NCBI GenBank assembly: GCA_025024175.1
Contig: QCXZ01000086.1
Location: 16,954,245 to 17,018,244 of the forward strand
Length of the DNA: 64,000 nt
DNA from: Rhyzopertha dominica
Lineage: Eukaryota; Arthropoda; Insecta; Coleoptera; Bostrichidae
Direction of reading: 5' to 3'
The notes beneath the pieces were generated by a model. That model saw only the letters and a program-made list of their open reading frames with translations, was not told where the DNA came from and searched no databases. Positions 1 to 30,607 of the stretch are shown here, piece by piece (positions within the stretch are counted from its first letter, which is position 1; each line of letters opens with the position of its first letter). Made by a program: the position numbers and the translations under genes.

Positions 1-1586
1 CGCGATTTTCTTTCTCCTTTTTATTCTGGAGTTGCATTTTAATTTCATTCATGAAAGGAGTGCCGGTTAAAACTTGAGAGCCAGTGATTTTCCCCTTCGT
101 GTTTCTTGCTTGCCCTGTAGAAACTGATTGGGGAAGTGGAGAAATCTCATTTAAAATCTCTTGGGTGCTAGACGATTCAGCAATGACTTGGTGATCACTC
201 TGAACTCTGATTTTGGCAGAATTTATTTTATGCTGTGCTGTGGTCGACGAAGAAGGTCCAGCAATATCTTCAAGATCAGGCTGCAGTTGATCAGCTGTTC
301 TAGTAAATTCTTTATCAGCTTCTTTTTCGTGGCCTTCATCATCCATCTCCATCTCAATAACATTTTCAGTTACTTCACTGGGCAGAAACAAATGATCCGG
401 AAAAACATGTGGGTTTAACGGATAAATTCCAGTTTTCTCAAAGCCACTCGTTATATTACCGACCGAGGCAACACTTCCGTATGCTCTCCCAAAAATACTG
501 GCGACTTGATAAAGCCCTACAGTTCTACCAGGGTGTGCTTTTAGCCAGGTGGTAATTTCACGGTTGTAAAATGCTTCAAGTGGTCCAAAAAATGACACGT
601 CCAGCGGCTGCATCCTATGGGTGCAGTGCGGGGGCAGACACACCAATATGACTCCATTAGCCTTAGCAAATTCTAATGCTTCTAGGTTCTTGTGGCTACC
701 GTGGCCATCCAGAATCAAAATAACTTTGTTTGTAGGGTTGCAGCCAGTAGAATTAACAAAATGTTTCACCCATTTGACAAATAAATGTCCAACCAAGTAG
801 CCACTTTCATAACATAGTTGCAAGGTTCCTGGAGGTGCGCCATCGAAATATTCAGGTTTAAAGTTTTTTCTAGGAATAATCATTGCAGGCGGAATGAAAT
901 TCCCAGCAGCATTAGCGCGAACAGCGATAGAGACATGCTGGCCTCGTTCGGCACTTGTCAATGCACCAACTTGTTTTTTCCCCTTCGATGCAAATATCTT
1001 TGGAGGCCTTTGGACGGTGCTGAGGCCAGATTCATCCATGTTGTAAATGTTTGATGGAGAAATATCATTATCAGTCACCAACTTCTGTAAAGAGTTCAAA
1101 GAACTTCATGACCTGTGGCTTATTAAAAACTCTTGCCCTAGCTGCGGAAGTGGCTTCAGGGGTCCTTAACGAGATGGAGGGGTTACGCTTCCTAAACCCT
1201 TTTAGCCAATCCCAACCTGCCATTTGTGTCTCTTCGTAAAATCTGTGGGACACACCCGCTCTGTTGGCAAATTCAAACGCCAATTTTCTCACATCCGTTG
1301 TAGTTAATCCAAAAAATCGTTGCTCAAAATCGAGCAAATGGTCCACAAATTGTTTTTCTGTGACTGAATCAAATGTGGGTTTGAAACGGCCCATATTTTG
1401 AGGAACATTCATGAAGTGACGACGTAGTGTGGCCTGTGGCACATTAAATGTTTTAGAAGCCCTTAACCACCCCATCTTGTTTTGTCTAACATGTTTTATG
1501 GCGCTTGCCATATCTTCATCTGACCACGCATTGCGTGTGGTCTTCCTCACATAGTTGGCGGGCATCCTGAAAAGAAAATATAACAT
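1..1586 (-). pseudogene. pogo transposase, copy A (frameshifted, C-terminus outside window)
   Basis: Reads from 1586 down. The first 171 codons hold a psq-type helix-turn-helix (about residues 10-55, NYVRKTTRNAW...) and a CENP-B-type DNA-binding part. At about 1095-1100 one extra G shifts the frame, so the first frame stops at 1071. The DDE_1 catalytic domain (NMDESGL, LDGHGSH, QPLDVS) continues in another frame to the window edge. The same single-base shift is in copies D and E, so the element was already inactive when the array was made. Confidence 0.88.
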
Positions 1587-2044
1587 AATTTTGAAGTATT
1601 TTTACAAGTAAGAAATTCAAGGTAAGATGACATACTATGTCATTTTAAGCCGATGGTTGGTATGTCATCTTGCCCTACGAGGTAAGAAATCTTTGGTGTT
1701 TTTTGCGACTTAAAAATTGTAAGGTTAGTTTAATGATTCTTCCATATTCTTAACTCATATCAACCACAGTTCATAGTAAATTAGTCAAATACCTCAAAAA
1801 ACTTACCTGAGAGATAGTTATCGGCACAAACACTTTCAACAAAATAATAATTTAGAGTGGCGAAATCAGAAACAATGCCACCACATCCGAATAACGCAAG
1901 CGGGCGGCCTCTAATGTTTTGAGTGATTGCGCCATCTGTTAGCCGACGTATGACAATCTATTACGAGCTTGTGGCACGTTTATTTGAACTGATACAGTAA
2001 CTATGTCATCTTACCTGAGTATGTCATCTTAAGCACAGTTCCCC
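1..2044 (-). mobile_element. pogo-type DNA transposon, copy A (partial)
   Basis: The right end of a Tc1/mariner-pogo element; the other end lies before the window. It ends in an inverted repeat reading GGGGAACTGTGCTTAAGATG inward and is followed by TA, the expected target duplication. It carries a minus-strand transposase (1-1586). Copies D and E further on show the complete element of about 2.52 kb. Near the end the motif GTAAGATGACATA recurs several times (around 1620-1680 and 2000-2035), probably subterminal binding sites. Confidence 0.9.
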
Positions 2045-2067
2045 TAATAATAAGGTCCATTCGTACA

Positions 2068-2787
2068 TTGTTCACCATTAACATGGCTTGCAATGCATCT
2101 ACGGAAATCAGGAAATTAGCACCTAATGTAAGGAAAGAATTAGAACAAATGTTAGACCAAGGAAGACAATGGCAGACACTCATGTCGATTGTACCTAAAA
2201 CTTTAAATGATAATTATAACGTTGATAATATTAAACAAAATAAGTATGGTCCAGTGGAGATAAAGTAAGTTACCTATTTGTAAATGTGATTCAATTCACA
2301 ATGTGTGACAGCACACAATTATTTGATAGTAATGATAAATAAATTTCACTGTTAATGTAGTAAATTGTTTGGTTTTAGGCTGGTCGAAGATGAAGCTATC
2401 CGAACACGTAGATCATTTACTGAAATTTTATTTGATGAATGGGGCACATCTGGCATGGTTCGTCCAAAGGTGGGACATTTATTACAACTTCTTATAAAGG
2501 CAGAGGCTTCTCGAGCTGCCGATTATGTGGCAGTACGCCTTTTAGGTCAGTCACTTCCTGGCAGGCCTAAACTAGGTCCGGCTGCCATTGGAATTCCTAA
2601 ATTAGATTCCAATTCAGACTTAGAAGAATTCCTTAAAAATATGAAGTGTGGCACTTCGACAGTTATGGATGGTGTTAAATGTACTGCTTTATGTACTAAT
2701 ATCAATTATAGTGATAGAATTCAATGTGTGAAAGGCATTGAAAAATCATTATTGAATCGGACCTTAGAGTCCAGTGCATGATGAAAT
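2068..2787 (+). pseudogene. tube: tube death-domain exons, array copy 1
   Basis: Exon 1 (likely ATG 2083, MACNASTEIRKL) ends at 2264 before donor gtaagt; a 114-bp intron ends in ttag at 2378; exon 2 runs from 2379. Spliced, the frame joins as EIK-LVEDEAIRTR. The product resembles the death domain of the Toll-pathway adaptor Tube: WQTLMSIVPK, then DEWGTSGMVRPKVGHLLQLL and AADYVAVRLLGQS match the order and spacing of the family. Tube binds MyD88 and Pelle at the membrane. Exon 2 stops at 2781. Only the N-terminal part is present; the copy ends at about 2787 where array-unit sequence begins. A transcribed decoy is possible but not shown. Confidence 0.8.
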
Positions 2788-3018
2788 TTTGGTTAAATTA
2801 GGGGTTCTTTATGATTATTAAACGTTGTTATTTATAGGTATTGAGTTCATCTATCTCTAGGGTAGTAGTACTCAGAATTTTGTGCATTTGTAGAAAATCC
2901 GTAAAATATCAACGTGATTTTGAGAGCGATGACACCCTTACTTCCGTTTTTAATTGTTTTGTGTTTATACGTTGTGGGTACTTACCTAAAGCCTAGAGGT
3001 GTTTGTGCGTGACATATA
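2788..3018. other. upstream flank of tube within the array unit
   Basis: About 231 bases present in every unit, directly before each pogo element. It replaces the continuation of tube exon 2 seen in the last copy, so by position it is the original 5' flank of tube (promoter or 5' UTR) into which pogo inserted. No ORF of note. The same stretch recurs at about 4506-4733, 6222-6446 and 9712-9939. Confidence 0.65.
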
Positions 3019-3762
3019 GGGGAATTGTGCTTAAGATGACATACTTTTTGTTTTGTGGTAGATATTCGAAAAGTGAAAGGCGCTAAAAAATAAATTTCAG
3101 ATTATATATATAAAACGTTTATGTAAGTACGGAATACAAAAAAGAAAACCGTCATTATGAAGAACTTTATATATGAAATAAAGAATAAAGCCCCTCTTGT
3201 CCACAGAGGTAAGTGGCACACGTCGTTCTAAGTTGACATACCTAATTATCGGTACACAATTCGCATATAAACTCCCGAGTTCTTGGTGCCACGCCAGCAC
3301 AAAGGGTGTGGCACCATCCCTTACATAATTGGCATCGTACCCAGTGTTCTCCTGGCTTTGATTTACTATATAATTCATTACAATAAAGGCATGCAGAATC
3401 GGAGAAATCTTTGGTGTTTTTTGCGACTTAAAAATTGTAAGGTTAGTTTAATGATTCTTCCATATTCTTAACTCATATCAACCACAGTTCATAGTAAATT
3501 AGTCAAATACCTCAAAAAACTTACTTGAGAGATAGTTATCGGCACAAACACTTTCAACAAAATAATATTTTCGAGTGGCGAAATCAGAAACAATGCCACC
3601 ACATCCGAATAACGCAAGCGGGCGGCCTCTAATGTTTTGAGTGATTGCGCCATCTGTTAGCCGACGTATGACAATCTATTACGAGCTTGTGGCACGTTTA
3701 TTTGAACTGATACAGTAACTATGTCATCTTACCTGAGTATGTCATCTTAAGCACAGTTCCCC
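3019..3762 (-). mobile_element. pogo element, copy B, internally deleted (744 bp)
   Basis: Flanked by TA on both sides, with inverted repeats GGGGAATTGTGC / GGGGAACTGTGC. Compared with copy D about 1.77 kb is missing: sequence ending gcagaatcgga joins directly to gaaatctttgg, with GA microhomology. Only the C-terminal tail of the transposase (about 3200-3378, minus) is left. This is the usual form of a non-autonomous pogo derivative. Confidence 0.9.
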
Positions 3763-3785
3763 TAATAATAAGGTCCATTCGTACA

Positions 3786-4505
3786 TTGTTCACCATTAAC
3801 ATGGCTTGCAATGCATCTACGGAAATCAGGAAATTAGCACCTAATGTAAGGAAAGAATTAGAACAAATGTTAGACCAAGGAAGACAATGGCAGACACTCA
3901 TGTCGATTGTACCTAAAACTTTAAATGATAATAATAACGCTGATAATATTAAACAAAATAAGTATGGTCCAGTGGAGATAAAGTAAGTTACCTATTTGTA
4001 AATGTCATTCAATTCACAATGTGTGACAGCACACAATTATTTGATAGTAATGATAAATAAATTTCACTGTTAATGTAGTAAATTGTTTGGTTTTAGGCTG
4101 GTCGAAGATGAAGCTATCCGAACACGTAGATCATTTACTGAAATTTTATTTGATGAATGGGGCACATCTGGCATGGTTCGTCCAAAGATGGGACATTTAT
4201 TACAACTTCTTATAAAGGCAGAGGCTTCTCGAGCTGCCGATTATGTGGCAGTACGCCTTTTAGGTCAGTCACTTCCTGGCAGGCCTAAACTAGGTCCGGC
4301 TGCCATTGGAATTCCTAAATTAGATTCCAATTCAGACTTAGAAGAATTCCTTAAAAATATGAAGTGTGGCACTTCGACAGTTATGGATGGTGTTAAATGT
4401 ACTGCTTTATGTACTAATATCTATTATAGTGATAGAATTCAATGTGTGAAAGGCATTGAAAAATCATTATTGAATCGGACCTTAGAGTCCAGTGCATGAT
4501 GAAAT
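3786..4505 (+). pseudogene. tube: tube death-domain exons, array copy 2
   Basis: Same layout as copy 1, 1718 bases downstream: exon 1 to 3982, intron 3983-4096, exon 2 4097-4499. Differs by a handful of substitutions (for example Val to Met before GHLLQLL, Asn to Tyr in CTNIYYSD). Splice sites are kept. It ends at the same position in exon 2 as the other internal copies. Confidence 0.8.
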
Positions 4506-4733
4506 TTTGGTTAAATTAGGGGTTCTTTATGATTATTAAACGTTGTTATTTATAGGTATTGAGTTCATCTATCTCTAGGGTAGTACTCAGAATTTTGTGC
4601 ATTTGTAGAAAATCCGTAAAATATCAACGTGATTTTGAGAGCGATGACACCCTTACTTCCGTTTTTAATTGTTTTGTGTTTATACGTTGTGGGTACTTAC
4701 CTAAAGCCTAGAGGTGTTTGTGCGTGACATATA

Positions 4734-5478
4734 GGGGAATTGTGCTTAAGATGACATACTTTTTGTTTTGTGGTAGATATTCGAAAAGTCAAAGGCGCTA
4801 AAAAATAAATTTCAGATTATATATTTAAAACGTTTATGTAAGTACGGAATACAAAAAAGAAAACCGTCATTATGAAGAACTTTATATATGAAATAAAGAA
4901 AAAAGCCCCTCTTGTCCACAGAGGTAAGATGGCACACGTCGTTCTAAGTTGACATACCTAATTATCGGTACACAATTCGCATATAAACTCCCGAGTTCTT
5001 GGTGCCACGCCAGCACNAAGGGTGTGGCACCATCCCTTACATAATNGGCATCGTACCCAGTGTTCTCCTGGCTTTGATTTACTATATAATTCATTACAAT
5101 AAAGGCATGCAGAATCGGAGAAATCTTTGGTGTTTTTTGCGACTTAAAAATTGTAAGGTTAGTTTAATGATTCTTCCATATTCTTAACTCATATCAACCA
5201 CAGTTCATAGTAAATTAGTCAAATACCTCAAAAAACTTACCTGAGAGATAGTTATCGGCACAAACACTTTCAACAAAATAATAATTTAGAGTGGCGAAAT
5301 CAGAAACAATGCCACCACATCCGAATAACGCAAGCGGGCGGCCTCTAATGTTTTGAGTGATTGCGCCATCTGTTAGCCGACGTATGACAATCTATTACGA
5401 GCTTGTGGCACGTTTATTTGAACTGATACAGTAACTATGTCATCTTACCTGAGTATGTCATCTTAAGCACAGTTCCCC
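4734..5478 (-). mobile_element. pogo element, copy C, internally deleted (745 bp)
   Basis: Same inverted repeats, TA flanks and deletion junction as copy B, so B and C descend from one deletion event followed by tandem duplication. Two ambiguous bases (5017, 5046). The remaining coding piece is the transposase C-terminus on the minus strand. Confidence 0.9.
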
Positions 5479-5501
5479 TAATAATAAGGTCCATTCGTAC
5501 A

Positions 5502-6221
5502 TTGTTCACCATTAACATGGCTTGCAATGCATCTACGGAAATCAGGAAATTAGCACCTAGTGTAAGGAAAGAATTAGAACAAATGTTAGACCAAGGAAGA
5601 CAATGGCAGACACTCATGTCGATTGTACCTAAAACTTTAAATGATAATTGTAACGCTGATAATATTAAACAAAATAAGTATGGTCCAGTGGAGATAAAGT
5701 AAGTTACCTATTTGTAAATGTGATTCAATTCACAATGTGTGACAGCACACAATTATTTGATAGTAATGATAAATAAATTTCACTGTTAATGTAGTAATTT
5801 GTTTGGTTTTAGGCTGGTCGAAGATGAAGCTATCCGAACACGTAGATCATTTACTGAAATTTTATTTGATGAATGGGGCACATCTGGCGTGGTTCGTCCA
5901 AAGGTGGGACATTTATTACAACTTCTTATAAAGGCAGAGGCTTCTCGAGCTGCCGATTATGTGGCAGTACGCCTTTTAGGTCAGTCACTTCCTGGCAGGC
6001 CTAAACTAGGTCCGGCTGCCATTGGAATTCCTAAATTAGATTCCAATTCAGACTTAAAAGAATTCCTTAAAAATATGAAGTGTGGCACTTCGACAGTTAT
6101 GGATGGTGTTAAATGTACTGCTTTATGTACTAATATCAATTATAGTGATAGAATTCAATGTGTGAAAGGCATTGAAAAATCATTATTGAATCGGACCTTA
6201 GAGTCCAGTGCATGATGAAAT
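5502..6221 (+). pseudogene. tube: tube death-domain exons, array copy 3
   Basis: Exon 1 to 5698, intron 5699-5812 (gtaagt...ttag), exon 2 5813-6215. Nearly identical to copies 1 and 2; exon 1 has Ser for Asn in KLAPSVRKEL, and exon 2 has Lys for Glu in DLKEFL. Ends in the same truncated exon 2. Confidence 0.8.
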
Positions 6222-6446
6222 TTTGGTTAAATTAGGGGTTCTTTATGATTATTAAACGTTATTTATAGGTATTGAGTTCATCTATCTCTAGGGTAGTACT
6301 CAGAATTTTGTGCATTTGTAGAAAATCCGTAAAATATCAACGTGATTTTGAGAGCGATGACACCCTTACTTCCGTTTTTAATTGTTTTGTGTTTATACGT
6401 TGTGGGTACTTACCTAAAGCCTAGAGGTGTTTGTGCGTGACATATA

Positions 6447-8968
6447 GGGGAATTGTGCTTAAGATGACATACTTTTTGTTTTGTGGTAGTTATTCGAAAA
6501 GTCAAAGGCGCTAAAAAATAAATTTCAGATTATATATTTAAAACGTTTATGTAAGTACGGAATACAAAAAAGAAAACCGTCATTATGAAGAACTTTATAT
6601 ATGAAATAAAGAAAAAAGCCCCTCTTGTCCACAGAGGTAAGATGGCACACGTCGTTCTAAGTTGACATACCTAATTATCGGTACACAATTCGCATATAAA
6701 CTCCCGAGTTCTTGGTGCCACGCCAGCACAAAGGGTGTGGCACNGNCCCTTACATAATTGGCATCGTACCCAGTGTTCTCCTGGCTTTGATTTACTATAT
6801 AATTCATTACAATAAAGGCATGCAGAATCGGATTCATCCATATCATCAGCGCCCTGACTAAAATCAGGTTCGCTATCTGAATCATCCTGAAAGATATTCC
6901 GCTTCACCTGCTTTCGAACTCTAACGCGATTTTCTTTCTCCTTTTTATTCTGGAGTTGCATTTTAATTTCATTCATGAAAGGAGTGCCGGTTAAAACTTG
7001 AGAGCCAGTGATTTTCCCCTTCGTGTTTCTTGCTTGCCCTGTAGAAACTGATTGGGGAAGTGGAGAAATCTCATTTAAAATCTCTTGGGTGCTAGACGAT
7101 TCAGCAATGACTTGGTGATCACTCTGAACTCTGATTTTGGCAGAATTTATTTTATGCTGTGCTGTGGTCGACGAAGAAGGTCCAGCAATATCTTCAAGAT
7201 CAGGCTGCAGTTGATCAGCTGTTCTAGTAAATTCTTTATCAGCTTCTTTTTCGTGGCCTTCATCATCCATCTCCATCTCAATAACATTTTCAGTTACTTC
7301 ACTGGGCAGAAACAAATGATCCGGAAAAACATGTGGGTTTAACGGATAAATTCCAGTTTTCTCAAAGCCACTCGTTATATTACCGACCGAGGCAACACTT
7401 CCGTATGCTCTCCCAAAAATACTGGCGACTTGATAAAGCCCTACAGTTCTACCAGGGTGTGCTTTTAGCCAGGTGGTAATTTCACGGTTGTAAAATGCTT
7501 CAAGTGGTCCAAAAAATGACACGTCCAGCGGCTGCATCCTATGGGTGCAGTGCGGGGGCAGACACACCAATATGACTCCATTAGCCTTAGCAAATTCTAA
7601 TGCTTCTAAGTTCTTGTGGCTACCGTGGCCATCCAGAATCAAAATAACTTTGTTTGTAGGGTTGCAGCCAGTAGAATTAACAAAATGTTTCACCCATTTG
7701 ACAAATAAATGTCCAACCAAGTAGCCACTTTCATAACATAGTTGCAAGGTTCCTGGAGGTGCGCCATCGAAATATTCAGGTTTAAAGTTTTTTCTAGGAA
7801 TAATCATTGCAGGCGGAATGAAATTCCCAGCAGCATTAGCGCGAACAGCGATAGAGACATGCTGGCCTCGTTCGGCACTTGTCAATGCACCAACTTGTTT
7901 TTTCCCCTTCGATGCAAATATCTTTGGAGGCCTTTGGACGGTGCTGAGACCAGATTCATCCATGTTGTAAATGTTTGATGGAGAAATATCATTATCAGTC
8001 ACCAACTTCTGTAAAGAGTTCAAAGTACTTCATGACCTGTGGCTTATTAAAAGCTCTTGCCCTAGCTGCGGAAGTGGCTTCAGGGGTCTTTAACGAGATG
8101 GAGGGGTTACGCTTCCTAAACCCTTTTAGCCAATCCCAACCTGCCATTTGTGTCTCTTCGTAAAATCTGTGGGACACACCCGCTCTGTTGGCAAATTCAA
8201 ACGCCAATTTTCTCACATCCGTTGTAGTTAATCCAAAAAATCGTTGCTCAAAATCGAGCAAATGGTCCACAAATTGTTTTTCTGTGACTGAATCAAATGT
8301 GGGTTTGAAACGGCCCATATTTTGAGGAACATTCATGAAGTGACGACGTAGTGTGGCCTGTGGCACATTAAATGTTTTAGAAGCCCTTAACCACCCCATC
8401 TTGTTTGGTCTAACATGTTTTATGGCGCTTGCCATATCTTCATCTGACCACGCATTGCGTGTGGTCTTCCTCACATAGTTGGCGGGCATCCTGAAAAGAA
8501 AATATAACATAATTTTGAAGTATTTTTACAAGTAAGAAATTCAAGGTAAGATGACATACTATGTCATTTTAAGCCGATGGGTGGTATGTCATCTTGCCCT
8601 ACGAGGTAAGAAATCTTTGGTGTTTTTTGCGACTTAAAAATTGTAAGGTTAGTTTAATGATTTTTCCATATTCTTAACTCATATCAACCACAGTTCATAG
8701 TAAATTAGTCAAATACCTCAAAAAACTTACCTGAGAGATAGTTATCGGCACAAACACTTTCAACAAAATAATATTTTCGAGTGGCGAAATCAGAAACAAT
8801 GCCACCACATCCGAATAACGCAAGCGGGCGGCCTCTAATGTTTTGAGTGATTGCGCCATCTGTTAGCCGACGTATGACAATCTATTACGAGCTTGTGGCA
8901 CGTTTATTTGAACTGATACAGTAACTATGTCATCTTACCTGAGTATGTCATCTTAAGCACAGTTCCCC
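6447..8968 (-). mobile_element. pogo element, copy D, full length (2522 bp)
   Basis: Complete element between TA dinucleotides, with 26-bp terminal inverted repeats differing at one base. It contains the whole transposase reading frame on the minus strand (6671-8510), broken once. Subterminal GTAAGATGACATA-like motifs lie inside both ends. It sits between tube copies 3 and 4. Confidence 0.93.
6671..8510 (-). pseudogene. pogo transposase, copy D (one frameshift)
   Basis: N-terminal frame 8510-7995 (171 codons: psq HTH and CENP-B-type domain). C-terminal frame 8023-6671 (450 codons: DDE_1 endonuclease with Asp in NMDESGL, LDGHGSH and QPLDVS, then an acidic linker). The last about 50 residues form a PHD-like zinc cluster (CLYC, CQLC, CHTLC, CELC). 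The two frames overlap around 8020, where a single extra G shifts the frame. Two ambiguous bases fall in the zinc cluster. The protein would cut and paste the element in the nucleus; this copy cannot encode it in one piece. Confidence 0.9.
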
Positions 8969-8991
8969 TAATAATAAGGTCCATTCGTACA

Positions 8992-9711
8992 TTGTTCACC
9001 ATTAACATGGCTTGCAATGCATCTACGGAAATCAGGAAATTAGCACCTAGTGTAAGGAAAGAATTAGAACAAATGTTAGACCAAGGAAGACAATGGCAGA
9101 CACTCATGTCGATTGTACCTAAAACTTTAAATGATAATTATAACGCTGATAATATTAAACAAAATAAGTATGGTCCAGTGGAGATAAAGTAAGTTACCTA
9201 TTTGTAAATGTGATTCAATTCACAATGTGTGACAGCACACAATTATTTGATAGTAATGATAAATAAATTTCACTGTTAATGTAGTAAATTGTTTGGTTTT
9301 AGGCTGGTCGAAGATGAAGCTATCCGAACACGTAGATCATTTACTGAAATTTTATTTGATGAATGGGGCACATCTGGCATGGTTCGTCCAAAGCTGGGAC
9401 ATTTATTACAACTTCTTATAAAGGCAGAGGCTTCTCGAGCTGCCGATTATGTGGCAGTACGCCTGTTAGGTCAGTCACTTCCTGGCAGGCCTACACTAGG
9501 TCCGGCTGCCATTGGAATTCCTAAATTAGATTCCAATTCAGACTTAGAAGAATTCCTTAAAAATATGAAGTGTGGCACTTCGACAGTTATGGATGGTGTT
9601 AAATGTACTGCTTTATGTACTAATATCAATTATAGTGATAGAATTCAATGTGTGAAAGGCATTGAAAAATCATTATTGAATCGGACCTTAGAGTCCAGTG
9701 CATGATGAAAT
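8992..9711 (+). pseudogene. tube: tube death-domain exons, array copy 4
   Basis: Exon 1 to 9188, intron 9189-9302, exon 2 9303-9705, followed by unit flank and pogo E. Substitutions include Val to Leu before GHLLQLL and Lys to Thr in GRPTLGPA. Splice sites and the terminal TGATGA are as in the other copies. Confidence 0.8.
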
Positions 9712-9939
9712 TTTGGTTAAATTAGGGGTTCTTTATGATTATTAAACGTTGTTATTTATAGATATTGAGTTCATCTATCTCTAGGGTAGTACTCAGAATT
9801 TTGTGCATTTGTAGAAAATCCGTAAAATATCAACGTGATTTTGAGAGCGATGACACCCTTACTTCCGTTTTTAATTGTTTTGTGTTTATACGTTGTGGGT
9901 ACTTACCTAAAGCCTAGAGGTGTTTGTGCGTGACATATA

Positions 9940-12460
9940 GGGGAATTGTGCTTAAGATGACATACTTTTTGTTTTGTGGTAGATATTCGAAAAGTCAAAG
10001 GCGCTAAAAAATAAATTTCAGATTATATATTTAAAACGTTTATGTAAGTACGGAATACAAAAAAGAAAACCGTCATTATGAAGAACTTTATATATGAAAT
10101 AAAGAAAAAAGCCCCTCTTGTTCACAGAGGTAAGATGGCACACGTCGTTCTAAGTTGACATACCTAATTATCGGTACACAATTCGCATATAAACTCCCGA
10201 GTTCTTGGTGCCACGCCAGCACAAAGGGTGTGGCACCGTCCCTTACATAATTGGCATCGTACCCAGTGTTCTCCTGGCTTTGATTTACTATATAATTCAT
10301 TACAATAAAGGCATGCAGAATCGGATTCATCCATATCATCAGCGCCCTGACTAAAATCAGGTTCGCTATCTGAATCATCCTGAAAGAGATTCCGCTTCAC
10401 CTGCTTTCGAACTCTAACGCGATTTTCTTTCTCCTTTTTATTCTGGAGTTGCATTTTAATTTCATTCATGAAAGGAGTGCCGGTTAAAACTTGAGAGCCA
10501 GTGATTTTCCCCTTCGTGTTTCTTGCTTGCCCTGTAGAAACTGATTGGGGAAGTGGAGAAATCTCATTTAAAATCTCTTGGGTGCTAGACGATTCAGCAA
10601 TGACTTGGTGATCACTCTGAACTCTGATTTTGGCAGAATTTATTTTATGCTGTGCTGTGGTCGACGAAGAAGGTCCAGCAATATCTTCAAGATCAGGCTG
10701 CAGTTGATCAGCTGTTCTAGTAAATTCTTTATCAGCTTCTTTTTCGTGGCCTTCATCATCCATCTCCATCTCAATAACATTTTCAGTTACTTCACTGGGC
10801 AGAAACAAATGATCCGGAAAAACATGTGGGTTTAACGGATAAATTCCAGTTTTCTCAAAGCCACTCGTTATATTACCGACCGAGGCAACACTTCCGTATG
10901 CTCTCCCAAAAATACTGGCGACTTGATAACGCCCTACAGTTCTACCAGGGTGTGCTTTTAGCCAGGTGGTAATTTCACGGTTGTAAAATGCTTCAAGTGG
11001 TCCAAAAAATGACACGTCCAGCGGCTGCATCCTATGGGTGCAGTGCGGGGGTAGACACAGCAATATGACTCCATTAGCCTTAGCAAATTCTAATGCTTCT
11101 AGGTTCTTGTGGCTACCGTGGCCATCCAGAATCAAAATAACTTTGTTTGTAGGGTTGCAGCCAGTAGAATTAACAAAATGTTTCACCCATTTGACAAATA
11201 AATGTCCAACCATGTAGCCACTTTCATAACATAGTTGCAAGGTTCCTGGAGGTGCGCCATCGAAATATTCAGGTTTAAAGTTTTTTCTAGGAATAATCAT
11301 TGCAGGCGGAATGAAATTCCCAGCAGCATTAGCGCGAACAGCGATAGAGACATGCTGGCCTCGTTCGGCACTTGTCAATGCACCAACTTGTTTTTCCCCT
11401 TCGATGCAAATATCTTTGGAGGCCTTTGGACGGTGCTGAGGCCAGATTCATCCATGTTGTAAATGTTTGATGGAGAAATATCATTATCAGTCACCAACTT
11501 CTGTAAAGAGTTCAAAGAACTTCATGACCTGTGGCTTATTAAAAGCTCTTGCCCTAGCTGCGGAAGTGGCTTCAGGGGTCCTTAACGAGATGGAGGGGTT
11601 ACGCTTCCTAAACCCTTTTAGCCAATCCCAACCTGCCATTTGTGTCTCTTCGTAAAATCTGTGGGACACACCCGCTCTGTTGGCAAATTCAAACGCCAAT
11701 TTTCTCACATCCGTTGTAGTTAATCCAAAAAATCGTTGCTCAAAATCGAGCAAATGGTCCACAAATTGTTTTTCTGTGACTGAATCAAATGTGGGTTTGA
11801 AACGGCCCATATTTTGAGGAACATTCATGAAGTGACGACGTAGTGTGGCCTGTGGCACATTAAATGTTTTAGAAGCCCTTAACCACCCCATCTTGTTTCG
11901 TCTAACATGTTTTATGGCGCTTGCCATATCTTCATCTGACCACGCATTGCGTGTGGTCTTCCTCACATAGTTGGCGGGCATCCTGAAAAGAAAATATAAC
12001 ATAATTTTGAAGTATTTTTACAAGTAAGAAATTCAAGGTAAGATGACATACTATGTCATTTTAAGCCGATGGTTGGTATGTCATCTTGCCCTACGAGGTA
12101 AGAAATCTTTGGTGTTTTTTGCGACTTAAAAATTGTAAGGTTAGTTTAATGATTCTTCCATATTCTTAACTCATATCAACCACAGTTCATAGTAAATTAG
12201 TCAAATACCTCAAAAAACTTACCTGAGAGATAGTTATCGGCACAAACACTTTGAACAAAATAATATTTTCGAGTGGCGAAATCAGAAACAATGCCACCAC
12301 ATCCGAATAACGCAAGCGGGCGGCCTCTAATGTTTTGAGTGATTGCGCCATCTGTTAGCCGACGTATGACAATCTATTACGAGCTTGTGGCACGTTTATT
12401 TGAACTGATACAGTAACTATGTCATCTTACCTGAGTATGTCATCTTAAGCACAGTTCCCC
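9940..12460 (-). mobile_element. pogo element, copy E, full length (2521 bp)
   Basis: Complete, TA-flanked, with the same inverted repeats as copy D and the same internal structure. It is the last pogo of the array and lies directly upstream of the tube copy that continues into the rest of the gene. Confidence 0.93.
10164..12002 (-). pseudogene. pogo transposase, copy E (two frameshifts)
   Basis: N-terminal frame 12002-11487, C-terminal frame from 11378 to 10164. It shares the extra-G shift of copies A and D near 11510 and has lost one T of a T-run near 11395, so the DDE frame is open only from MTSAERGQHV. All three DDE residues of the family and the full C-terminal PHD-like cluster (CQLCKGRCHTLC, CELC) are readable here without ambiguous bases. 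Confidence 0.9.
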
Positions 12461-12483
12461 TAATAATAAGGTCCATTCGTACA

Positions 12484-13197
12484 TTGTTCACCATTAACAT
12501 GGCTTGCAATGCATCTACGGAAATCAGGAAATTAGCACCTAATGTAAGGAAAGAATTAGAACAAATGTTAGACCAAGGAAGACAATGGCAGACACTCATG
12601 TCGATTGTACCTAAAACTTTAAATGATAATTATAACGCTGATAATATTAAACAAAATAAGTATGGTCCAGTGGAGATAAAGTAAGTTACCTATTTGTAAA
12701 TGTGATTCAATTCACAATGTGTGACAGCACACAATTATTTGATAGTAATGATAAATAAATTTCACTGTTAATGTAGTAAATTGTTTGGTTTTAGGCTGGT
12801 CGAAGATGAAGCTATCCGAACACGTAGATCATTTACTGAAATTTTATTTGATGAATGGGGCACATCTGGCATGGTTCGTCCAAAGGTGGGACATTTATTA
12901 CAACTTCTTATAAAGGCAGAGGCTTCTCGAGCTGCCGATTATGTGGCAGTACGCCTTTTAGGTCAGTCACTCCCTGGCAGGCCTAAACTAGGTCCGGCTG
13001 CCATTGGAATTCCTAAATTAGATTCCAATTCAGACTTAGAAGAATTCCTTAAAAATATGAAGTGTGGCACTTCGACAGTTATGGATGGTGTTAAATGTAC
13101 TGCTTTATGTACTAATATCAATTATAGTGATAGAATTCAATGTGTGAAAGGCATTGAAAAATCATTATTGAATCGGACCTTAGAGTCCAGTGCATGA
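12484..13197 (+). pseudogene. tube: tube death-domain exons, array copy 5 (junction with the rest of the gene)
   Basis: Exon 1 to 12680, intron 12681-12794, exon 2 12795-13197. Unlike copies 1-4, the sequence after the shared gatgaaa does not switch to unit flank but continues as tube-like coding sequence (next entry), so this is the right edge of the tandem duplication. Exon 2 frame stops at TGA 13195-13197; the next open frame is shifted by one base. The TGATGA is common to all copies, so the shift predates the array unless an exon boundary was missed here. Confidence 0.8.
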
Positions 13198-13815
13198 TGA
13201 AAATTTGCCACGATTGAGTTATTTGATGCAGCAAAATGGGTCAGAAGTAACCAGTTTTGGAGAGGACTGTGTGACTGATACTAATAAGAATCTAGAGATA
13301 GTATAATCAGCCCAGATTCATCAATTGTAAAACACGAAAACGCTTCAAGCCATGAAGTTCCTGCGTTTTCGAAACTTTTAAGTTTAAATGATAATGCACC
13401 TTCTGCAGCTGTCGCATTTCCAAGTGACAAATATTACAACCAGCATTTAGTGCATTGAACATGGCTAACACAAATTGTATGATTGGAGAAAGCAGTTCCT
13501 GCCGTCCTTTTTTTTAATACATGAGAGACTTCAAATACTACATAGTCTTAAAAAATTAATCACGTTCCACTTGTCTATTACACTTACCAGTATTGTCATT
13601 GAATACCATTCTGAAAGCATATACTTACCATCAACTGGAGGCAGCAATGAAGAATTTTGATAAGACTCCACATAACAGTATAGAATCGCCTGATGGATTT
13701 TTGTGGTCTGGTGCATTTGGCATTCTTGTGATGGACCCACATATTGTCTTTTATATGAATATGTTTCCGGAGCGACTTTATATGATATATTGCTACGTGT
13801 GTTAAAGGTAAGAAT
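13198..13815 (+). pseudogene. degraded remainder of a tube-like kinase gene
   Basis: Coding-like pieces in shifting frames follow array copy 5: HDENLPRLSYLMQQNGSEV (13188-13300), then PDSSIVKHENASSHEVPAF (13311-13460) one base out of phase. At about 13615-13740 comes YTYHQLEAAMKNFDKTPHN followed by WSGAFGIL, which resembles the start of an IRAK/Pelle/Tube kinase domain (Y-x-x-L-E-x-A-x-x-N-F-D, then a glycine loop). The loop is incomplete, and no catalytic lysine or HRD region follows before the (TA)n tract at 13855. At least two frameshifts; read as a pseudogene or a broken end of the locus. The assignment rests on order and these motifs. Confidence 0.6.
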
Positions 13816-13854
13816 AAACTAGTTATATAGTTATATATAGTTATATAGTTATAT

Positions 13855-13928: not shown

Positions 13929-16855
13929 CGGAATAGTATGTTCCTGAACCAAATGTATGTTTCTGAATGCAAAAACCTGAACCACTCTGGAAAACCTGAA
14001 CCATATATGTGGTTCAGGTTTTCAAGCCGTACGCACGCTTCCATGATGACCTCTAATGCCCGTAGAATGAATTTCAAAATGGCGCATGTTTAGACGAATC
14101 TCCATTTCGTAGTTTCACCGTTTTAGCACCGAGCCGATGGTGGCGCTGTAGTCGCCACCGCGGGTGTATATCTGTATAATAATCATCCTGAACCAACAAC
14201 AATTTTACTCCTATAATTCTGTGCGGGGACTGTGAGTCGAAGAAGGGAGGACGCGTAGGGGAGGCTACGTTGAGAGGAGAATTGCGGGCTATAACTTATG
14301 ATATGCTATTGATTGTATTAAAATATTTTGATTTAAGGTTTCTGATTATGTAAGGTCAGAAACAAATTATACTTATATGAATCATTAAACCGCTTTAATC
14401 TAGAAACATTTTGATTTATACATGGCATGATACAAATAACACATTGTTTTGTATTATTTATTTACAATAATATGGTAGAGCGTCTTCTGCTACCTAAAAG
14501 CCACCGTCAGTACCAAAATTAAAAAAAATAAATAGCAACTTTTACAACTACTTTGGCATTGTCATCAGGGAATAAAATCTACTGGACACTTTTTACATTT
14601 CATTAAGTCACATCACTGATACATTATTTTTTAATAGAAAAGTATAATTTTTTACATGCGCAAATGGCTAATTTTTATTCCTTTATCGGCTTATTCTTTA
14701 TCTTTTTATTATTTTTTATATTTTTTTGTAAAATAGCAAATAGAAACATATGCTGATGCAGAAAAAAGGTATTTATAAAATCAATTATTTATTCATAAAT
14801 CTAAATTAGGTACGTCAACTATCAGTATTGAAAAATAAACATATAGAAGGCGTAGGTGTTGTATGCTATATAATACTTTTTATGCATCCTCATAAAAAGC
14901 ATAGTCTTGATAAATCTGGGAACCTGGGTGGCCGCAATTTATTGCTCAACCTCTACCGATTCCTTTGTGTTAGTATTGTTGGTTTTAAAAACTTCGTGAC
15001 CTTGTTAAGAGGCACATCTTCATGTTGCAGCCACATTCCTTGTCGAAGATGTAGACATTACATCCTTTTATAAAAAATTAAGAATTATATTCATTAAATG
15101 TATCACTAAATTTGCTCTAAAATTTGAAACAACCTGAACAAGCCATAATTAAAGGGTAATTATCCTAACAATAGGTGACACTTGAAAAAGGAAGCTTAAA
15201 ATTAGAGACAGATGAACTGACACAACCCACTTAAAGGACTCTTCGGTATGTTCACATACCTATTCGTTAGTATTCCGCTGATACTATACCGCTGTTGGTT
15301 AAATTAAAATTGACATCCTGGCGCCTTCTTATTGCAAGCCAGCTGATTTTGATGTTTATCCGGCCGGACACTGCGGACAGAATTCCCATAACAGTTCATC
15401 AAATTGAACTTCGCGGGCAAAATGCACAATCCATTTAAAGGGACTAGTTGTTCAAGGTCATTGAAACCTAATCGAAAAGATCAAAGGTGCCGCTTCATGT
15501 ATTGTTAGGATGTATTTAATTTCATTTTAAAAATGACATTTACACTTTTATTTCTTATATTATACCATCAATTATGAGGTTTTGAGCATTTTTTTTGTAC
15601 ACATTTTTTTCTACGACAAACGGTTTTCGCGATATTAGCAAAAATCCATAAGTTTGTAAAATCAGATTTTTCTAAATAACTCGAAAATTATTAACATAAC
15701 AAAAAAATTGCAAGAGTGCTTTTCGATCGTAAATTTGATTTTCTACATAATAGCAAAATTTAAAAGAAAATCGTGTGGACGGGGTCCAAAATCCAGTTTC
15801 TTTGAAATATTTCAAAAATATCAAAATTTTGGAAAAACTTTTTACAATACTTTTGGTGAAAAATATTATTTCCTATCTGATGGTACTTTTACTTTTTGAA
15901 TATGTTAAGTATTTTTGGAAATATTTAGAAAAAAACCGTTTTTTTAAGTGACTGTTTTTTGCAAATAACTTATAAACAGTTTGGGTAGTTGAGTGCCAAA
16001 TTTCAAGTTCATATGTTGTCTTTCGAAAGTTATGGACTACACACACAGACGAGAAAATTTTTTTTGCTCAAAATTTGTTTGTGGACGTTTTCGAACATTT
16101 TAAAGCGATCGAGCAAATAAAAATTTTTGAAATTTTTTTTCCCGATACAGTGCTTCCATATCCATTGGATGCGGAAGTAAAATTATTTGACCAGCTATAC
16201 TACAAAAAAACTATACAAAAGTCTTTCTAACTGTACAGTACAGGGGGTCCAATTTTACAGAAATATTTTACACTAACTCGTTGTCTTTTCTTTAAGTCTA
16301 CTTCAGTATTTTAAAATAATGTTTTTTTTTCTGATGTACTGGTCAAACTGTTTTTAATTGGAACCATATTTGGCCATAATATAATCAAAAATAGTATTTT
16401 GTTCATTCACCAAATTTATAGTGTAATTTATTTTAATAATTAAAAAATCAACAAAATTGTATTACCTATATTTTACTGCAATTATGATTATTAAAAGAAT
16501 GAGCATTGACATTTATTATTATTCATTAATTCTATGTAGTCAGATACTGAGGGCTCATGGCTGACCGGGCAACTATTTGGTCTTACGTCTACTTCCCCCA
16601 CCACATGGATCAGGATCTCCTGATGAACATACATACTGGTTCAGGACCGGATTGATCAATAGGATCAGGAACATACAAATTCTTTGTATAAAAATTAAAA
16701 TTAATTTTGTGATTTTGTCGCGTATAATTTAGTAAATTGACAGTGATAGTAAATAATTAACAAATATACTCAATAAAATATTTGGTTTGAGCCTGATTTA
16801 AGGATGGTTCAGGATTTTAGCTAAAGTCAATCGGTTCAGGAATAATATATTGATA
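13928..16855. repeat. non-coding repeat region edged by CCTGAACCA motifs
   Basis: No credible ORF. Clusters of CCTGAACC and its complement GGTTCAGG lie at the left (13941, 13977, 13995, 14010, 14188) and right edges (16638, 16806, 16830), mostly in opposite orientation. At 13991-14022 AAAACCTGAACCA faces TGGTTCAGGTTTT across a 6-base loop, a perfect hairpin. This layout would fit subterminal repeats of a non-autonomous DNA transposon of about 2.9 kb, but target duplication and boundaries are not clear. Confidence 0.4.
15500..16177 (+). repeat. palindrome-ended AT-rich repeat, copy 1
   Basis: Non-coding, rich in A/T runs. It matches, in opposite orientation, the repeat at 62407-63174 (shared stretches such as caaatttcaagttcatat and tttcgaaagtta). 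Its right end is a near-palindrome CTTCCATATCC-A-TTGGATGCGGAAG at 16153-16177. The left boundary is degraded and only approximate. Confidence 0.6.
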
Positions 16856-16920
16856 ATGAAGAACTAGGTTTCCGGGATCTGCTCCGCGTTGTCAAATGTT
16901 GATCCTCCACTGGACCGTTG

Positions 16921-16967
16921 AACTGACGACGTTTCGGCACGGTCTCACGTGCCATCTTCAGGTCTTC
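16921..16967 (-). ncRNA. hammerhead-ribozyme-like core, family 1, left arm
   Basis: On the minus strand: CUGAAGA, stem II GGCAC/GUGCC with an 8-nt loop, then GAAAC and ACGUC. The minimal palindromic ACGU helix III is typical of hammerheads reported in Penelope-like elements, thought to act as dimers. It would self-cleave the element RNA. Predicted by eye from core and helix only. Confidence 0.6.
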
Positions 16968-17058
16968 TCTGCTGCTGCTGCTGCTGCTGCTGCTGTTCTG
17001 CTCCGCGTTACACGGCTACAACTTGTAGCCGTGATTGTAGCCGTGTAACGCGGAGCAG

Positions 17059-17106
<48 letters not shown>

Positions 17107-17157
17107 GAAGACCTGAAGATGGCACGTGAGACCGTGCCGAAACGTCGTCAGTTCAAC
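17107..17157 (+). ncRNA. hammerhead-ribozyme-like core, family 1, right arm
   Basis: CUGAAGA at 17113-17119, stem II 17121-17125 with 17134-17138, GAAAC at 17139-17143, expected cleavage after C17146. Short helix I candidates GAC/GUC and GAA/UUC flank the core with a bulge. It is the mirror copy of the core at 16921-16967. Confidence 0.6.
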
Positions 17158-17244
17158 GGTCCAGTGGAGGATCAACATTTGACAACGCGGAGCAGATCCC
17201 GGAAACCTAGTTCTTCATATAACGCCCGCGGAAGCCTGAAACAA

Positions 17245-17669: not shown

Positions 17670-18398
17670 ATGGCCGCCACCAGAAGTAAAGGAATTGATA
17701 TCAAATCAATTATTAGAGAAACTATTACCGAATTACTCTCAGATGACTCGTTTGTTTCTCGTGTGGCAGACAAGGTAAAAAGTAACCTAGGCATAGATGA
17801 GTTGGTACAAAAAGTGAAGGCCTGTGAAGCTGAGATTAGCGCACTGAGAGATGAGCGTGCTCTTTTGTTAAATCAAGCCGATATGGCGGATCAATATAAC
17901 AGGAGGAATAACATTAGAATTTTCGGCATCAAAGAAGTACAGGATGAAAATATTGAAACAGTGGTATTGGAGATGTTCCAATCTAAGCTCAATGTAAGCT
18001 TACAACCTCATGATATGGACCGTTGTCATCGCGTGGGCAAGCCAAGGGCTGATGGAAAAAGGCCTGTTATAGTTAAGTTCCTACGGTATAGTCACAAGAT
18101 CCAAGTTATATCCAATCAGAGACGTTTGAAAGGCTCTCATATTTTTATAGCTGAAGATCTCACATCTTCGCGTTATAAACTTTTAAAGCAAAGCATGGAA
18201 AAGTGGGACAAGAAGAATGTTTGGCTATATAATGGGAAAATTTATGTTAACACTGAGGGTAAGAGGATCGTTATTTCAAGCCAGGAAGACCTAAATGAGC
18301 ATATTAAGGTTAAACTATCCCAAAGCGATGGAGTGGGCATGGAGTCCCTGAAGGGTGGTTTAAGACGCAGTATCGCTGAAGCACTGGTTAATATGTGA
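17670..18398 (+). CDS. non-LTR retrotransposon ORF1 protein (242 aa)
   Basis: ATG in good context (agtATGG). A charged N-terminal region with coiled-coil character (about residues 40-75, VQKVKACEAEISALRDERA) is followed by an ORF1-type nucleic-acid-binding segment: NRRNNIRIFGI, MDRCHRVGKPR, RPVIVKFLRY. ORF1 proteins of this type coat the element RNA and assist reverse transcription. A related, broken ORF1 fragment lies at 24892-25125. The stop is 212 bases before the ORF2 start. Confidence 0.85.
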   Translation: MAATRSKGIDIKSIIRETITELLSDDSFVSRVADKVKSNLGIDELVQKVKACEAEISALRDERALLLNQADMADQYNRRNNIRIFGIKEVQDENIETVVLEMFQSKLNVSLQPHDMDRCHRVGKPRADGKRPVIVKFLRYSHKIQVISNQRRLKGSHIFIAEDLTSSRYKLLKQSMEKWDKKNVWLYNGKIYVNTEGKRIVISSQEDLNEHIKVKLSQSDGVGMESLKGGLRRSIAEALVNM

Positions 18399-18610
18399 AC
18401 TTATTTGCATACATAATGTGAGCTTATAGATATTTGTTCTTTTTTACCGGACTTTCCTTTTTCTGTATTTTTGTTTATAGTGGGGTTAGATAGAGCTTCA
18501 AAATATACTTTTGCACTTTTTTTTGTCTTCACTCATCGATATGTATACGTTTCTTGTTTTCTTACATAGCCTTAATTATACTTAAATTGTTTGCGGTTTA
18601 GTAGTTTTAT

Positions 18611-21749: not shown

Positions 21750-21785
<36 letters not shown>

Positions 21786-21788
21786 TAT
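21750..21788. repeat. (TTA)n then (TA)n tail microsatellite
   Basis: The ATT/TTA repeats are the 3' tail of the CR1-type element; they pass directly into TA repeats and then the next Penelope terminus. Confidence 0.9.
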
Positions 21789-21850
21789 GATAAACTAGGT
21801 TTCCGGGATCTGCTCCGCGTTGTCAAATGTTGATCCTCCACTGGACCGTT

Positions 21851-21898
21851 GAACTGACGACGTTTCGGCACGGTCTCACGTGCCATCTTCAGGTCTTC
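21851..21898 (-). ncRNA. hammerhead-ribozyme-like core, family 1, element terminus
   Basis: Same core as at 16921-16967 (minus strand CUGAAGA, GGCAC/GUGCC, GAAAC-GUC), placed just 3' of the Penelope reading frame. This ties the motif to the element. Confidence 0.6.
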
Positions 21899-21956
21899 TC
21901 TGCTGCTGCTGCCGCTGCTGCTGCTGTTCTGCTCCGCGTTACATGGCTACNACTGA

Positions 21957-23145
21957 CATCCGGTGCTGCTGCTGCTGGTATATATACCCGNCGGGTGCCA
22001 GGCNTCGTCGCGCTTGGTTGGCTTCCTGCTTGACTGGNTATTGGACGGTTGGTGGNTGTTGTTGTCCGTGTCCTTGTTTTTGTATTGAGGGCTGGTTTCC
22101 AGGTCGGTGGTAATCTTTGTGTATCATCTCTTGTATTCAAGCTGTGTGGTCTCCTTTCAATCTCTATGGCTTCTCTGATGATACGTTTAGTTTTGTGTTC
22201 GATGCTCGCTATAACTTTGGTGTTATCGAAGTCTATTCGATGCGAAGTACTTCTCACGTGTTCTGCTAAAGATGACGATGTTTCCATTTTCCTGACAGCA
22301 TTTTGGTGTTCTTCGCGTCGTACGTTGATTCTCCTGTTGGTTTGTCCTACGTAGCTGCCTTCACAATCTTTACATGGGATTTCGTAGACTCCTTGTGCTT
22401 CTAGTTCGATCTTCGTCTTCGCATTCGGAAGCATCTGGCTTATCTTCCTCGATGTGGTGAACGTGGTCGCAATGTTGTGCTTCTTCAGGACTCTGCTGAC
22501 TCTCTCTGTAGTTCCTTTGATATATGGTAGGTGAGCTTTGGCTACAGGTTTGGTTTCCTCTTCTGCTGGATCCCTCTGTCGACGTGGTCGTAGCGCCTTT
22601 TTGATGTCATCTCTGGTGAATCCGTTCTGCTGTAGTGTTGTTTTGGTCCTCTTAATTTCTGTAGGTCTGCTTTCTATATCCGTTAAGCGTTCCGATCTGG
22701 CGACTAGAGTCTTGATTACTGACTGCAGTTGGGCTGGATGATGATGCGATTGAGCGTTCAGGTACCGGTTCGTGTGTGTAGGTTTTCGGTACACTGTATA
22801 CCTTAACTTGTCCTTCTTCTTGGTTATTAGGACGTCCAGGAATGGTAGCTGGTTATTGTTTTCAATCTCCATCGTAAAAGTTATGTTGTTGTGGATACTA
22901 TTCAGGTGGTCCATGAATTCCTTGAGTTTCTCCTCTCCATGGCTCCAGATAACGAAGGTGTCGTCCACGTAGCGTAACCATAATCTTGGTTTCCAGGGTG
23001 CTGTTCTGATTGCTCTCTCCTCCAGGTCTTGCATGAACAAGTTCGATATTATCGGCGATAGCGGTGAACCCATCGGTGCTCCCTCGACTTGTTTGTATTG
23101 TATATAGCTACAAGGACCAAAAATACAAACAAGTCGTAGGAGCCC
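21957..23145 (-). pseudogene. Penelope-like RT and GIY-YIG endonuclease (N-terminally truncated)
   Basis: Begins inside the RT at [19 protein letters not shown], followed by the catalytic YVDDTFVIW and the thumb region (PFLDVLITKK). A linker then leads to the GIY-YIG nuclease: GVYEIPCKDCEGSYVGQTN with the usual Cys pair, and REEHQ. The open frame continues past the element's coding end into polyalanine from CAG repeats; that tail is not real coding sequence. Several ambiguous bases lie near 21951-22054. Confidence 0.87.
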
Positions 23146-23163
23146 CGCGGAAGCCTGAAGCAA

Positions 23164-23166
<3 letters not shown>

Positions 23167-23254
<88 letters not shown>
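23167..23254. repeat. (TA)n microsatellite
   Basis: TA run of about 88 bases. It cuts the downstream end of the Penelope RT frame that begins at 24095. Confidence 0.97.
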
Positions 23255-23255
23255 C

Positions 23256-30447: not shown

Positions 30448-30607
30448 GATTATACAAATTGCACACTGAAAATTAATATTAATAGAAAATAGATACGGTA
30501 AGGTATTAGATACTAATCTTTCCATCATGGTCAGAGGTAACAAGGGGAGTTCACTTAAGTGAACCATATAAAAGTTGTTTAATAAATGGTCAGCAAATTA
30601 CAGATGT

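What the first reader, a model, noticed from the sequence alone, without database searches (positions are those of the whole stretch)
1..13197. Macrosatellite of Toll-pathway tube death-domain exons alternating with pogo transposons
Five near-identical copies of tube upstream flank, exon 1, intron and exon 2 are spaced 1717 or 3490 bases apart, each separated by a pogo element in the same place about 40 bases before the tube ATG. Each copy keeps its splice sites. The array runs off the window at the left. Amplification of the N-terminal exons of an immune adaptor together with a transposon is unusual. Possible outcomes are death-domain-only decoys, read-through antisense to pogo, or a small-RNA source; all of these are inference.
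Basis: partly seen in the sequence, partly recalled or inferred. Interest (0 to 1): 0.88.

Follow-up and report, generated by a model that had tools for sequence, protein, structure and literature searches.

The report
Tandem broken tube-gene fragments with transposon
In what looks like a beetle genome, the front end of a second, broken copy of an immune-signalling gene, with a jumping gene lodged just before it, has been copied eight times in a row, while an intact gene sits elsewhere; the copies change like spare DNA, so they are probably not making a working protein.

Summary
The five copies in the window are units 4-8 of an eight-unit array (about 21.6 kb). Each unit is tube-like kinase (TLK/IRAK4-type) exons 1-2 behind a pogo element inserted at one TA, 36 bp before the start codon; unit 2 has lost exon 1 and unit 1 its ATG. 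An intact gene with death and kinase domains lies on another contig (88%). The array copies had lost the kinase frame before amplification. Within the array the coding sequence changes as fast as pogo (0.38% vs 0.41%), with 14 nonsynonymous and 3 synonymous changes, the neutral ratio. Best reading: a duplicated pseudogene fragment carrying a pogo insertion, tandemly amplified by end-joining and unequal exchange. The decoy idea is not supported for the array as it stands. Pogo's transposase strand would read leftward into the neighbouring tube exons in antisense, as hoppel does in Drosophila Su(Ste); with 88% identity to an intact target this small-RNA reading is possible but untested. Pogo copy number was never obtained.

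The parts
1..2046 (-). pogo-type element (long form), left part outside the window; transposase on the minus strand
2083..2264 (+). array unit 4, tube-like exon 1
2379..2781 (+). array unit 4, tube-like exon 2 fragment ending in a shared frameshift stop
2788..3016 (+). unit spacer: piece of the gene's intron 2 joined to 5' flank (tandem junction)
3017..3764 (-). pogo-type element, short form (internal deletion, junction near 3403)
3801..3982 (+). array unit 5, exon 1
4097..4499 (+). array unit 5, exon 2 fragment
4506..4731 (+). unit spacer as at 2788-3016
4732..5480 (-). pogo-type element, short form, same internal deletion (junction near 5119)
5517..5698 (+). array unit 6, exon 1
5813..6215 (+). 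array unit 6, exon 2 fragment
6222..6444 (+). unit spacer as at 2788-3016
6445..8970 (-). pogo-type element, long form; HTH-bearing reading frame 7995-8510 and DDE_1 reading frame 6671-8023 lie in different frames
   Evidence: (DDE_1 scanned in this copy, HTH_psq in the copy at 9938)
9007..9188 (+). array unit 7, exon 1
9303..9705 (+). array unit 7, exon 2 fragment
9712..9937 (+). unit spacer as at 2788-3016
9938..12462 (-). pogo-type element, long form (transposase frames 10164-11378 and 11487-12002)
12499..12680 (+). array unit 8 (last), exon 1
12795..13197 (+). array unit 8, exon 2 death-domain reading frame to the shared stop
13208..13840 (+). rest of exon 2 and start of intron 2, in the last unit only: degenerate linker and kinase start, with frameshifts and a deletion of 160-170 bases relative to the intact gene

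Best explanation
A tandemly amplified, unprocessed pseudogene fragment. The 5' half of the tube-like kinase (TLK, the arthropod IRAK4 counterpart) was duplicated away from the intact gene, lost its kinase reading frame, took a pogo insertion at a TA 36 bp before its ATG, lost about 2 kb between exon 2 and intron 2, and was joined head to tail. Unequal exchange then raised it to eight units; on the way one pogo lost 1.8 kb internally and spread to two intervals, and unit 2 lost exon 1. Shown: unit anatomy, common insertion site, pogo-free copies elsewhere, intact parent, frameshifts, junction sequences. Inferred: order of events, end-joining and unequal exchange as mechanisms, absence of a protein function.
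For: Genome search with exons 1-2 gives 13 places: 8 in the array, 1 relic on the same contig, 3 on small contigs, 1 intact gene; the Tube death-domain profile gives the same 13 loci (16 candidates scored, counts are lower bounds). The parent has a Tube death domain and three exon pieces over the kinase cut-off. No pogo match lies in the 40 kb fetched around the parent or beside the three small-contig copies. The first frameshift before the stop is shared by all 8 units and by relic L025, so it predates amplification. Unit 8 against the parent: death-domain frame one gap, of 3 bases; the next 300 bases gaps of 1, 1, 27, 1, 1. Within the array: CDS 17 changes in 4498 bases, long pogo 51 in 12452; 14 N to 3 S against 79% nonsynonymous sites. 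Few differences group units (informative columns: tube 1, spacer 0, long pogo 6, pogo right end 3), as after a burst. Two array changes hit conserved death-domain positions: S in all units where 9 of 9 other rows have F, Y or L; and M (V in unit 6) where 8 of 9 have R.
Against: Six of eight units still encode the whole 194-residue frame with a GT-AG intron, and that frame shows 8.2% divergence from the parent without a frameshift while the sequence beyond it decayed. On the branch before amplification the count is 8 N to 4 S (ratio 0.53), not different from neutral (p 0.29) but also compatible with some constraint. Gene conversion between copies (intron 1 at 0.9% but exon 2 at 6.2% between array and C55) blurs these rates. 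The three small-contig copies lack about 24 bases at the insertion point, so their exact site is not preserved and loss of a pogo there is not excluded; only the parent shows the site, aligned by eye.
Confidence: 0.78

Rival explanations
1. Su(Ste)-like silencing locus: pogo-initiated transcripts run leftward through pogo into the tube exons of the neighbouring unit in antisense and feed small RNAs against the intact tube-like kinase mRNA or against sibling copies.
For: Transposase frames lie on the minus strand, tube on the plus strand, so pogo read-through is antisense to the unit on its left. All five window pogo copies, short ones included, keep the 362-base right end where a promoter would be. 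The array is 88% identical to the intact gene; 96 of 157 exon-1 and 312 of 1197 exon-2 26-mers of the intact gene match the array with at most 2 mismatches, 0 for the reversed control. Su(Ste) has a similar layout: tandem repeats about 90% identical to Ste, transcription starting in a hoppel insertion (PMC10567549, passages read).
Against: No transcript or small-RNA data. Nothing shows that the pogo promoter works; no reason is known to silence a single-copy immune kinase. Any transposon in reverse orientation would give this geometry.
Confidence: 0.08
2. Death-domain-only decoys: the units are spliced into a 194-residue Tube death-domain protein that binds MyD88 or Pelle and damps Toll signalling.
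For: Intact spliced frame in 6 of 8 units; death-domain profile match well over cut-off; the frame has no frameshift against the parent while the sequence after it decayed.
Against: Neutral ratio and transposon-like rate within the array; start codon lost in unit 1 and exon 1 in unit 2; a conserved hydrophobic position changed to Ser in all units; pogo separates the native 5' flank from the ATG by 0.75 or 2.5 kb. A 194-residue spliced product was not among the 8 proteins found (127 candidates); the one near-identical record, 138 residues, begins in the intron, so it comes from unspliced DNA.
Confidence: 0.05
3. Assembly artefact: one unit written several times.
For: The same assembly has a 1.78-kb 99.1% direct repeat on both sides of a 100-N gap at 32264-32363, typical of an unmerged overlap; five single N letters lie in the array.
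Against: Units differ in length and in private changes with a natural-looking spectrum (38 transitions, 35 transversions; 25 of 73 are G>A or C>T although the window is 62% AT), unit 2 has its own deletion, and no run of N lies in the array. The exon-2 frame was found in 33 contigs, the longest 3523 bases, which is one long period (3490-3493) plus about 31, as a head-to-tail repeat would give in a k=31 assembly (k is recalled, and the tool does not show the source of these contigs).
Confidence: 0.08

Closest known systems
Tube / tube-like kinase (TLK), arthropod IRAK4 counterpart
   Same: Exons 1-2 encode the Tube death domain; the intact parent has death domain plus kinase, as TLKs do (PMC3498205 passages).
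   Different: Array units stop before the kinase through old frameshifts, and units 1-7 also through a junction in exon 2.
pogo superfamily DNA transposons (PMC7386202, passages read)
   Same: TA on both sides, short terminal repeats, HTH_psq and DDE_1 domains, DD35D spacing, 2.5 kb.
   Different: Transposase split between two frames in all five long copies; PHD-like tail only below cut-off; family within pogo not assigned.
Drosophila Su(Ste) repeats with 1360/hoppel
   Same: Tandem gene-derived repeats with a transposon, 88-90% identity to an intact gene, transposon oriented so that its transcripts would run antisense into the gene-derived part.
   Different: Eight units, not shown to be sex-linked; the intact relative is an immune kinase; no RNA evidence.
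Tandemly amplified unprocessed pseudogene / segmental duplication (recalled category)
   Same: Intron kept, kinase disabled, copies drift neutrally.
   Different: A DNA transposon forms part of the repeat unit.

Membership tests
Tube/TLK family | Tube death domain (PF14786) | tested here: met
   E 1.6e-25, 90.2 bits against cut-off 25; 1d2z_B E 1.2e-17
Tube/TLK family | Kinase domain in TLK members (absent in Drosophila Tube) | tested here: not met
   Array units end before it; the last unit has a degenerate, frameshifted, deleted start of it. The parent on C136 meets it
pogo superfamily | TA target duplication and terminal inverted repeats | tested here: met
   28 of 29 bases match including the TA, TA both sides
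pogo superfamily | HTH plus DDE_1 transposase with DDxD triad | tested here: met
   HTH_psq E 2.9e-07, DDE_1 E 1.9e-15; 35 residues between the last two D
pogo superfamily | Transposase in one continuous frame (one or two reading frames occur in the superfamily) | tested here: inconclusive
   HTH and DDE parts lie in two frames in 5 of 5 long copies; relatives such as P0010 have both domains in one protein; an intron at the split was not tested
Su(Ste)-type silencing array | Tandem repeats about 90% identical to an intact gene, with a transposon in the repeats | tested here: met
   88% to the intact gene, pogo at the same place in the units; Su(Ste) description from passages
Su(Ste)-type silencing array | Transcription starts in the transposon and runs antisense into the gene-derived part | not testable with these tools
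   Orientation allows it; no RNA data
Su(Ste)-type silencing array | Antisense small RNAs that lower target expression | not testable with these tools
   No small-RNA data
Unprocessed pseudogene array | Introns kept, reading frame disabled relative to parent | tested here: met
   Intron 1 with both splice sites in 7 of 8 units; shared frameshifts
Unprocessed pseudogene array | No constraint on coding sequence | tested here: met
   Within the array 14 N to 3 S and CDS rate equal to pogo. Before amplification inconclusive: 8 N to 4 S

The most novel reading that the evidence does not exclude
A convergent Su(Ste)-like system in a beetle: pogo-driven antisense RNA from truncated tube-like kinase repeats makes small RNAs that tune the intact Toll-pathway kinase (or tune other kinase-less tube copies, whose death-domain frame may have been kept for a while after the kinase was lost).
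Probability: 0.06. Interest if true: 0.8.

Novelty: new member of a known kind. Interest (0 to 1): 0.36.

Why it matters
As it stands it is a clear example of how a transposon insertion and a few joining accidents turn a gene fragment into a tandem array. If small RNAs were found, it would be a second, independently evolved transposon-plus-pseudogene array of the Su(Ste) kind, aimed at an immune kinase.

Tried and rejected
Chance or low-complexity match: rejected by the Tube profile and solved-structure matches. Retrocopy: rejected, intron 1 is kept. Transposon capture (tube carried inside pogo): rejected, because both terminal repeats and TA sites of each complete pogo in the window lie outside the tube segment, and pogo-free copies exist. 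A family of working kinase copies: of the 13 death-domain loci only C136 was seen to run on into kinase exons; the first 10 kb of C55 matches the parent only around exons 1-2, and L025 matches it only in exon 2, intron 2 and flanks; C48 ends soon after exon 2, and C32 was compared only with C55 and with the unit pieces. A DNA search for the number of pogo copies in the genome was sent 16 times and never answered, so whether the short form is a dispersed family is unknown. The 13.6 kb to the left of the array has no match to the window at E 1e-10. Literature: pogo with tube death domain, 0 papers; searches gave nothing on point in the listings.
Full report
What is there. The window is C86:16954245-17018244 of a 479-Mb, 138-contig genome. 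The best-scoring named relatives of the intact gene are beetle proteins (Tribolium, Cylas, Leptinotarsa and others), so the host is probably a beetle; this is inference. The five copies have spacings 1718, 1716, 3490 and 3492, and spliced each gives 194 residues and a stop. Pfam calls it Tube death domain (E 1.6e-25), and the Drosophila Tube death domain structure 1d2z is the best solved relative (E 1.2e-17).

The array is bigger than the window. A genome search with exons 1-2 returned 13 places (13 of 13 candidates scored): seven full and one exon-2-only unit in one array on C86 (16946287 to 16967441), a relic 0.95 Mb away (C86:16000961), copies on contigs C55, C48 and C32 (92-93%), and C136:43370030 (88%). 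The Tube death-domain profile found the same 13 loci (16 candidates scored). The tool warns that such counts are lower bounds. Landmarks place the array at about 16945815-16967447; its left edge begins inside a truncated pogo.

Intact parent. On C136 exon 1 and exon 2 have open frames and the following exons continue the kinase; Pfam gives Death_2 and protein kinase over cut-off in exon 2 and kinase in the next two exons. Exon limits were set by eye; the 3' end of the gene was not read. Exon 1 of the parent carries two N letters. It is a tube-like kinase, the arthropod counterpart of IRAK4 (PMC3498205, passages read).

Anatomy of a unit. From left to right: about 125 bases of the gene's intron 2, about 90-100 bases of native 5' flank, the pogo element, 36 bases, exon 1 (182), intron 1 (114), exon 2 (403 to the stop). 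In the parent and in L025 the intron-2 piece lies downstream of exon 2; in C55, C48 and C32 the 5' flank runs into the gene with no pogo, although these three lack about 24 bases just at the insertion point, so a lost pogo is not excluded there. In the parent the corresponding stretch has no pogo (aligned by eye). The unit is a head-to-tail joint of intron 2 to the 5' flank. Read by eye from the printed junctions, that joint shares about 2 bases, and the joint between exon 2 and intron 2 about 3. The last unit lacks the exon 2/intron 2 joint and keeps the older downstream sequence, as the rightmost copy of a tandem duplication should.

Pogo. The copy at 6445-8970 has 2526 bases including the TAs; terminal repeats match in 28 of 29 bases; TA lies on both sides; the short form (748 bases) has one internal deletion with the same junction in two intervals. 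HTH_psq and DDE_1 domains and 35 residues between the last two aspartates fit pogo as described in PMC7386202 (passages read). The domains lie in two frames in 5 of 5 long copies. Relatives are common: 986 proteins at E <= 0.001 among 4069 candidates, 120 listed.

Broken before it was amplified. A missing base near the end of the death-domain frame, with a second one soon after, leads to the stop shared by the units; both gaps are also in L025. Against the parent, unit 8 has 8.2% change and one 3-base gap in exons 1-2 up to that point, but 15.0% and gaps of 1, 1, 27, 1, 1 in the next 300 bases, and 13.6% with gaps of 2, 1, 3 and 169 columns after that; intron 1 has 14.5% and gaps of 17 and 4. 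C55, read by eye, meets a stop of its own a little further along. So the array and, as far as seen, C55 are kinase-less.

Selection. Within the array 17 coding differences were counted: 14 nonsynonymous, 3 synonymous, where neutral expectation is 79% nonsynonymous; one (N15S) is shared by two units and counted twice. Coding sequence changes at 0.38% (17 of 4498), long pogo at 0.41% (51 of 12452), intron 0.24% (2 of 817), spacer 0.12% (2 of 1617), 5' flank 1 of 245. No coding indel was seen, against 6 in 12452 bases of long pogo, which is too few to tell. On the branch leading to the array the count is 8 N to 4 S, p 0.29; on the C55 branch 10 to 6, p 0.12; on the parent's side 18 to 11, p 0.04. 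So an earlier period of constraint on a kinase-less death-domain gene is neither shown nor excluded. Gene conversion is likely, because intron 1 differs by 0.9% and exon 2 by 6.2% between array and C55, and L025 resembles C55 in one stretch and the array in another.

Star-like history. Columns that group units are few: tube 1, spacer 0, long pogo 6, pogo right end 3. The 73 differences have 38 transitions and 35 transversions, 25 of them G>A or C>T. With a recalled rate of about 3e-9 per site per generation, 0.4% per unit means roughly a million generations since the burst; this is an estimate only.

Is it an assembly error? The assembly does contain a likely false duplication at a gap (32264-32363), and five single N letters lie in the array. 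Against it: no run of N in the array, units with different lengths, a private deletion and private mutations. The exon-2 frame occurs in 33 contigs of the protein collection, longest 3523 bases, close to a long period plus 31. The source of those contigs is not shown by the tool and k=31 is recalled, so this is supporting evidence only.

How it most likely works. As protein: probably not at all. As DNA: a passive array, open to further unequal exchange. As RNA: pogo's coding strand is opposite to tube, so read-through beyond its left end would be antisense to the unit on the left. This resembles the Su(Ste) arrangement, where transcription begins in hoppel and repeats are about 90% identical to Ste (PMC10567549, passages read). 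Of the parent's 26-mers, 96 of 157 in exon 1 and 312 of 1197 in exon 2 match the array with at most two mismatches; a reversed-sequence control gave none. I give this 6-8%.

Literature. Searches of the held library for pogo with tube death domain (0 papers), pogo tandem duplication in insects (2 papers), Tube/IRAK4 duplication (5 papers), pogo with PHD (9 papers, 8 listed), Su(Ste) with hoppel (9 papers) and pseudogene/piRNA/tandem array (1 paper) showed no report of this locus in their listings; (478 papers, 10 listed) returned unrelated papers. Only PMC7386202, PMC10567549 and PMC3498205 were opened, and only passages were read.

Noticed in passing
30498-34142: A 1.78-kb direct repeat, 99.1% identical, lies on both sides of a 100-N gap (32264-32363): probably two overlapping contig ends that were not merged.
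   Followed up: partly
17670-21436 and 58577-61161: A non-LTR retrotransposon with a 242-aa first frame and a 941-aa endonuclease/reverse transcriptase frame; part of a second copy, about 98.7% identical, lies inverted some 37 kb away.
   Followed up: partly
21771-24095: Probably a Penelope-like element (reverse transcriptase over cut-off, GIY-YIG only below cut-off) with a repeat that also occurs as a hairpin at 16856-17218.
   Followed up: no
34614-36050: A long minus-strand frame that by eye resembles a second Penelope-type reverse transcriptase.
   Followed up: no
37940-38395: Piece of a different, more distant pogo-type transposase (by eye).
   Followed up: no
15524-16180: A dispersed repeat that also occurs inverted at 62406-63098 and, at 80-85%, near L025 and upstream of the parent locus on C136.
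   Followed up: no
42776-47332 and 51737-58070: Reading frames that look by eye like LTR retroelements; observed only.
   Followed up: no
49430-50988 and 55079-56299: A 163-bp minisatellite and duplicated stretches of 612 and 931 bp, 5.3-5.6 kb apart.
   Followed up: no
L021, L022, L023/L024: Contigs C55, C48 and C32 share 2.5-3.8 kb at about 99% around a pogo-free tube copy; in C48 and C55 it lies near a contig end, so it may be another repeat that broke the assembly.
   Followed up: partly
proteins P0208, P0209, P0216, P0219-P0225: Tube-death-domain proteins without a kinase match in other records, one named from Ceutorhynchus assimilis: kinase-less tube copies or partial genes may occur in other insects.
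   Followed up: no
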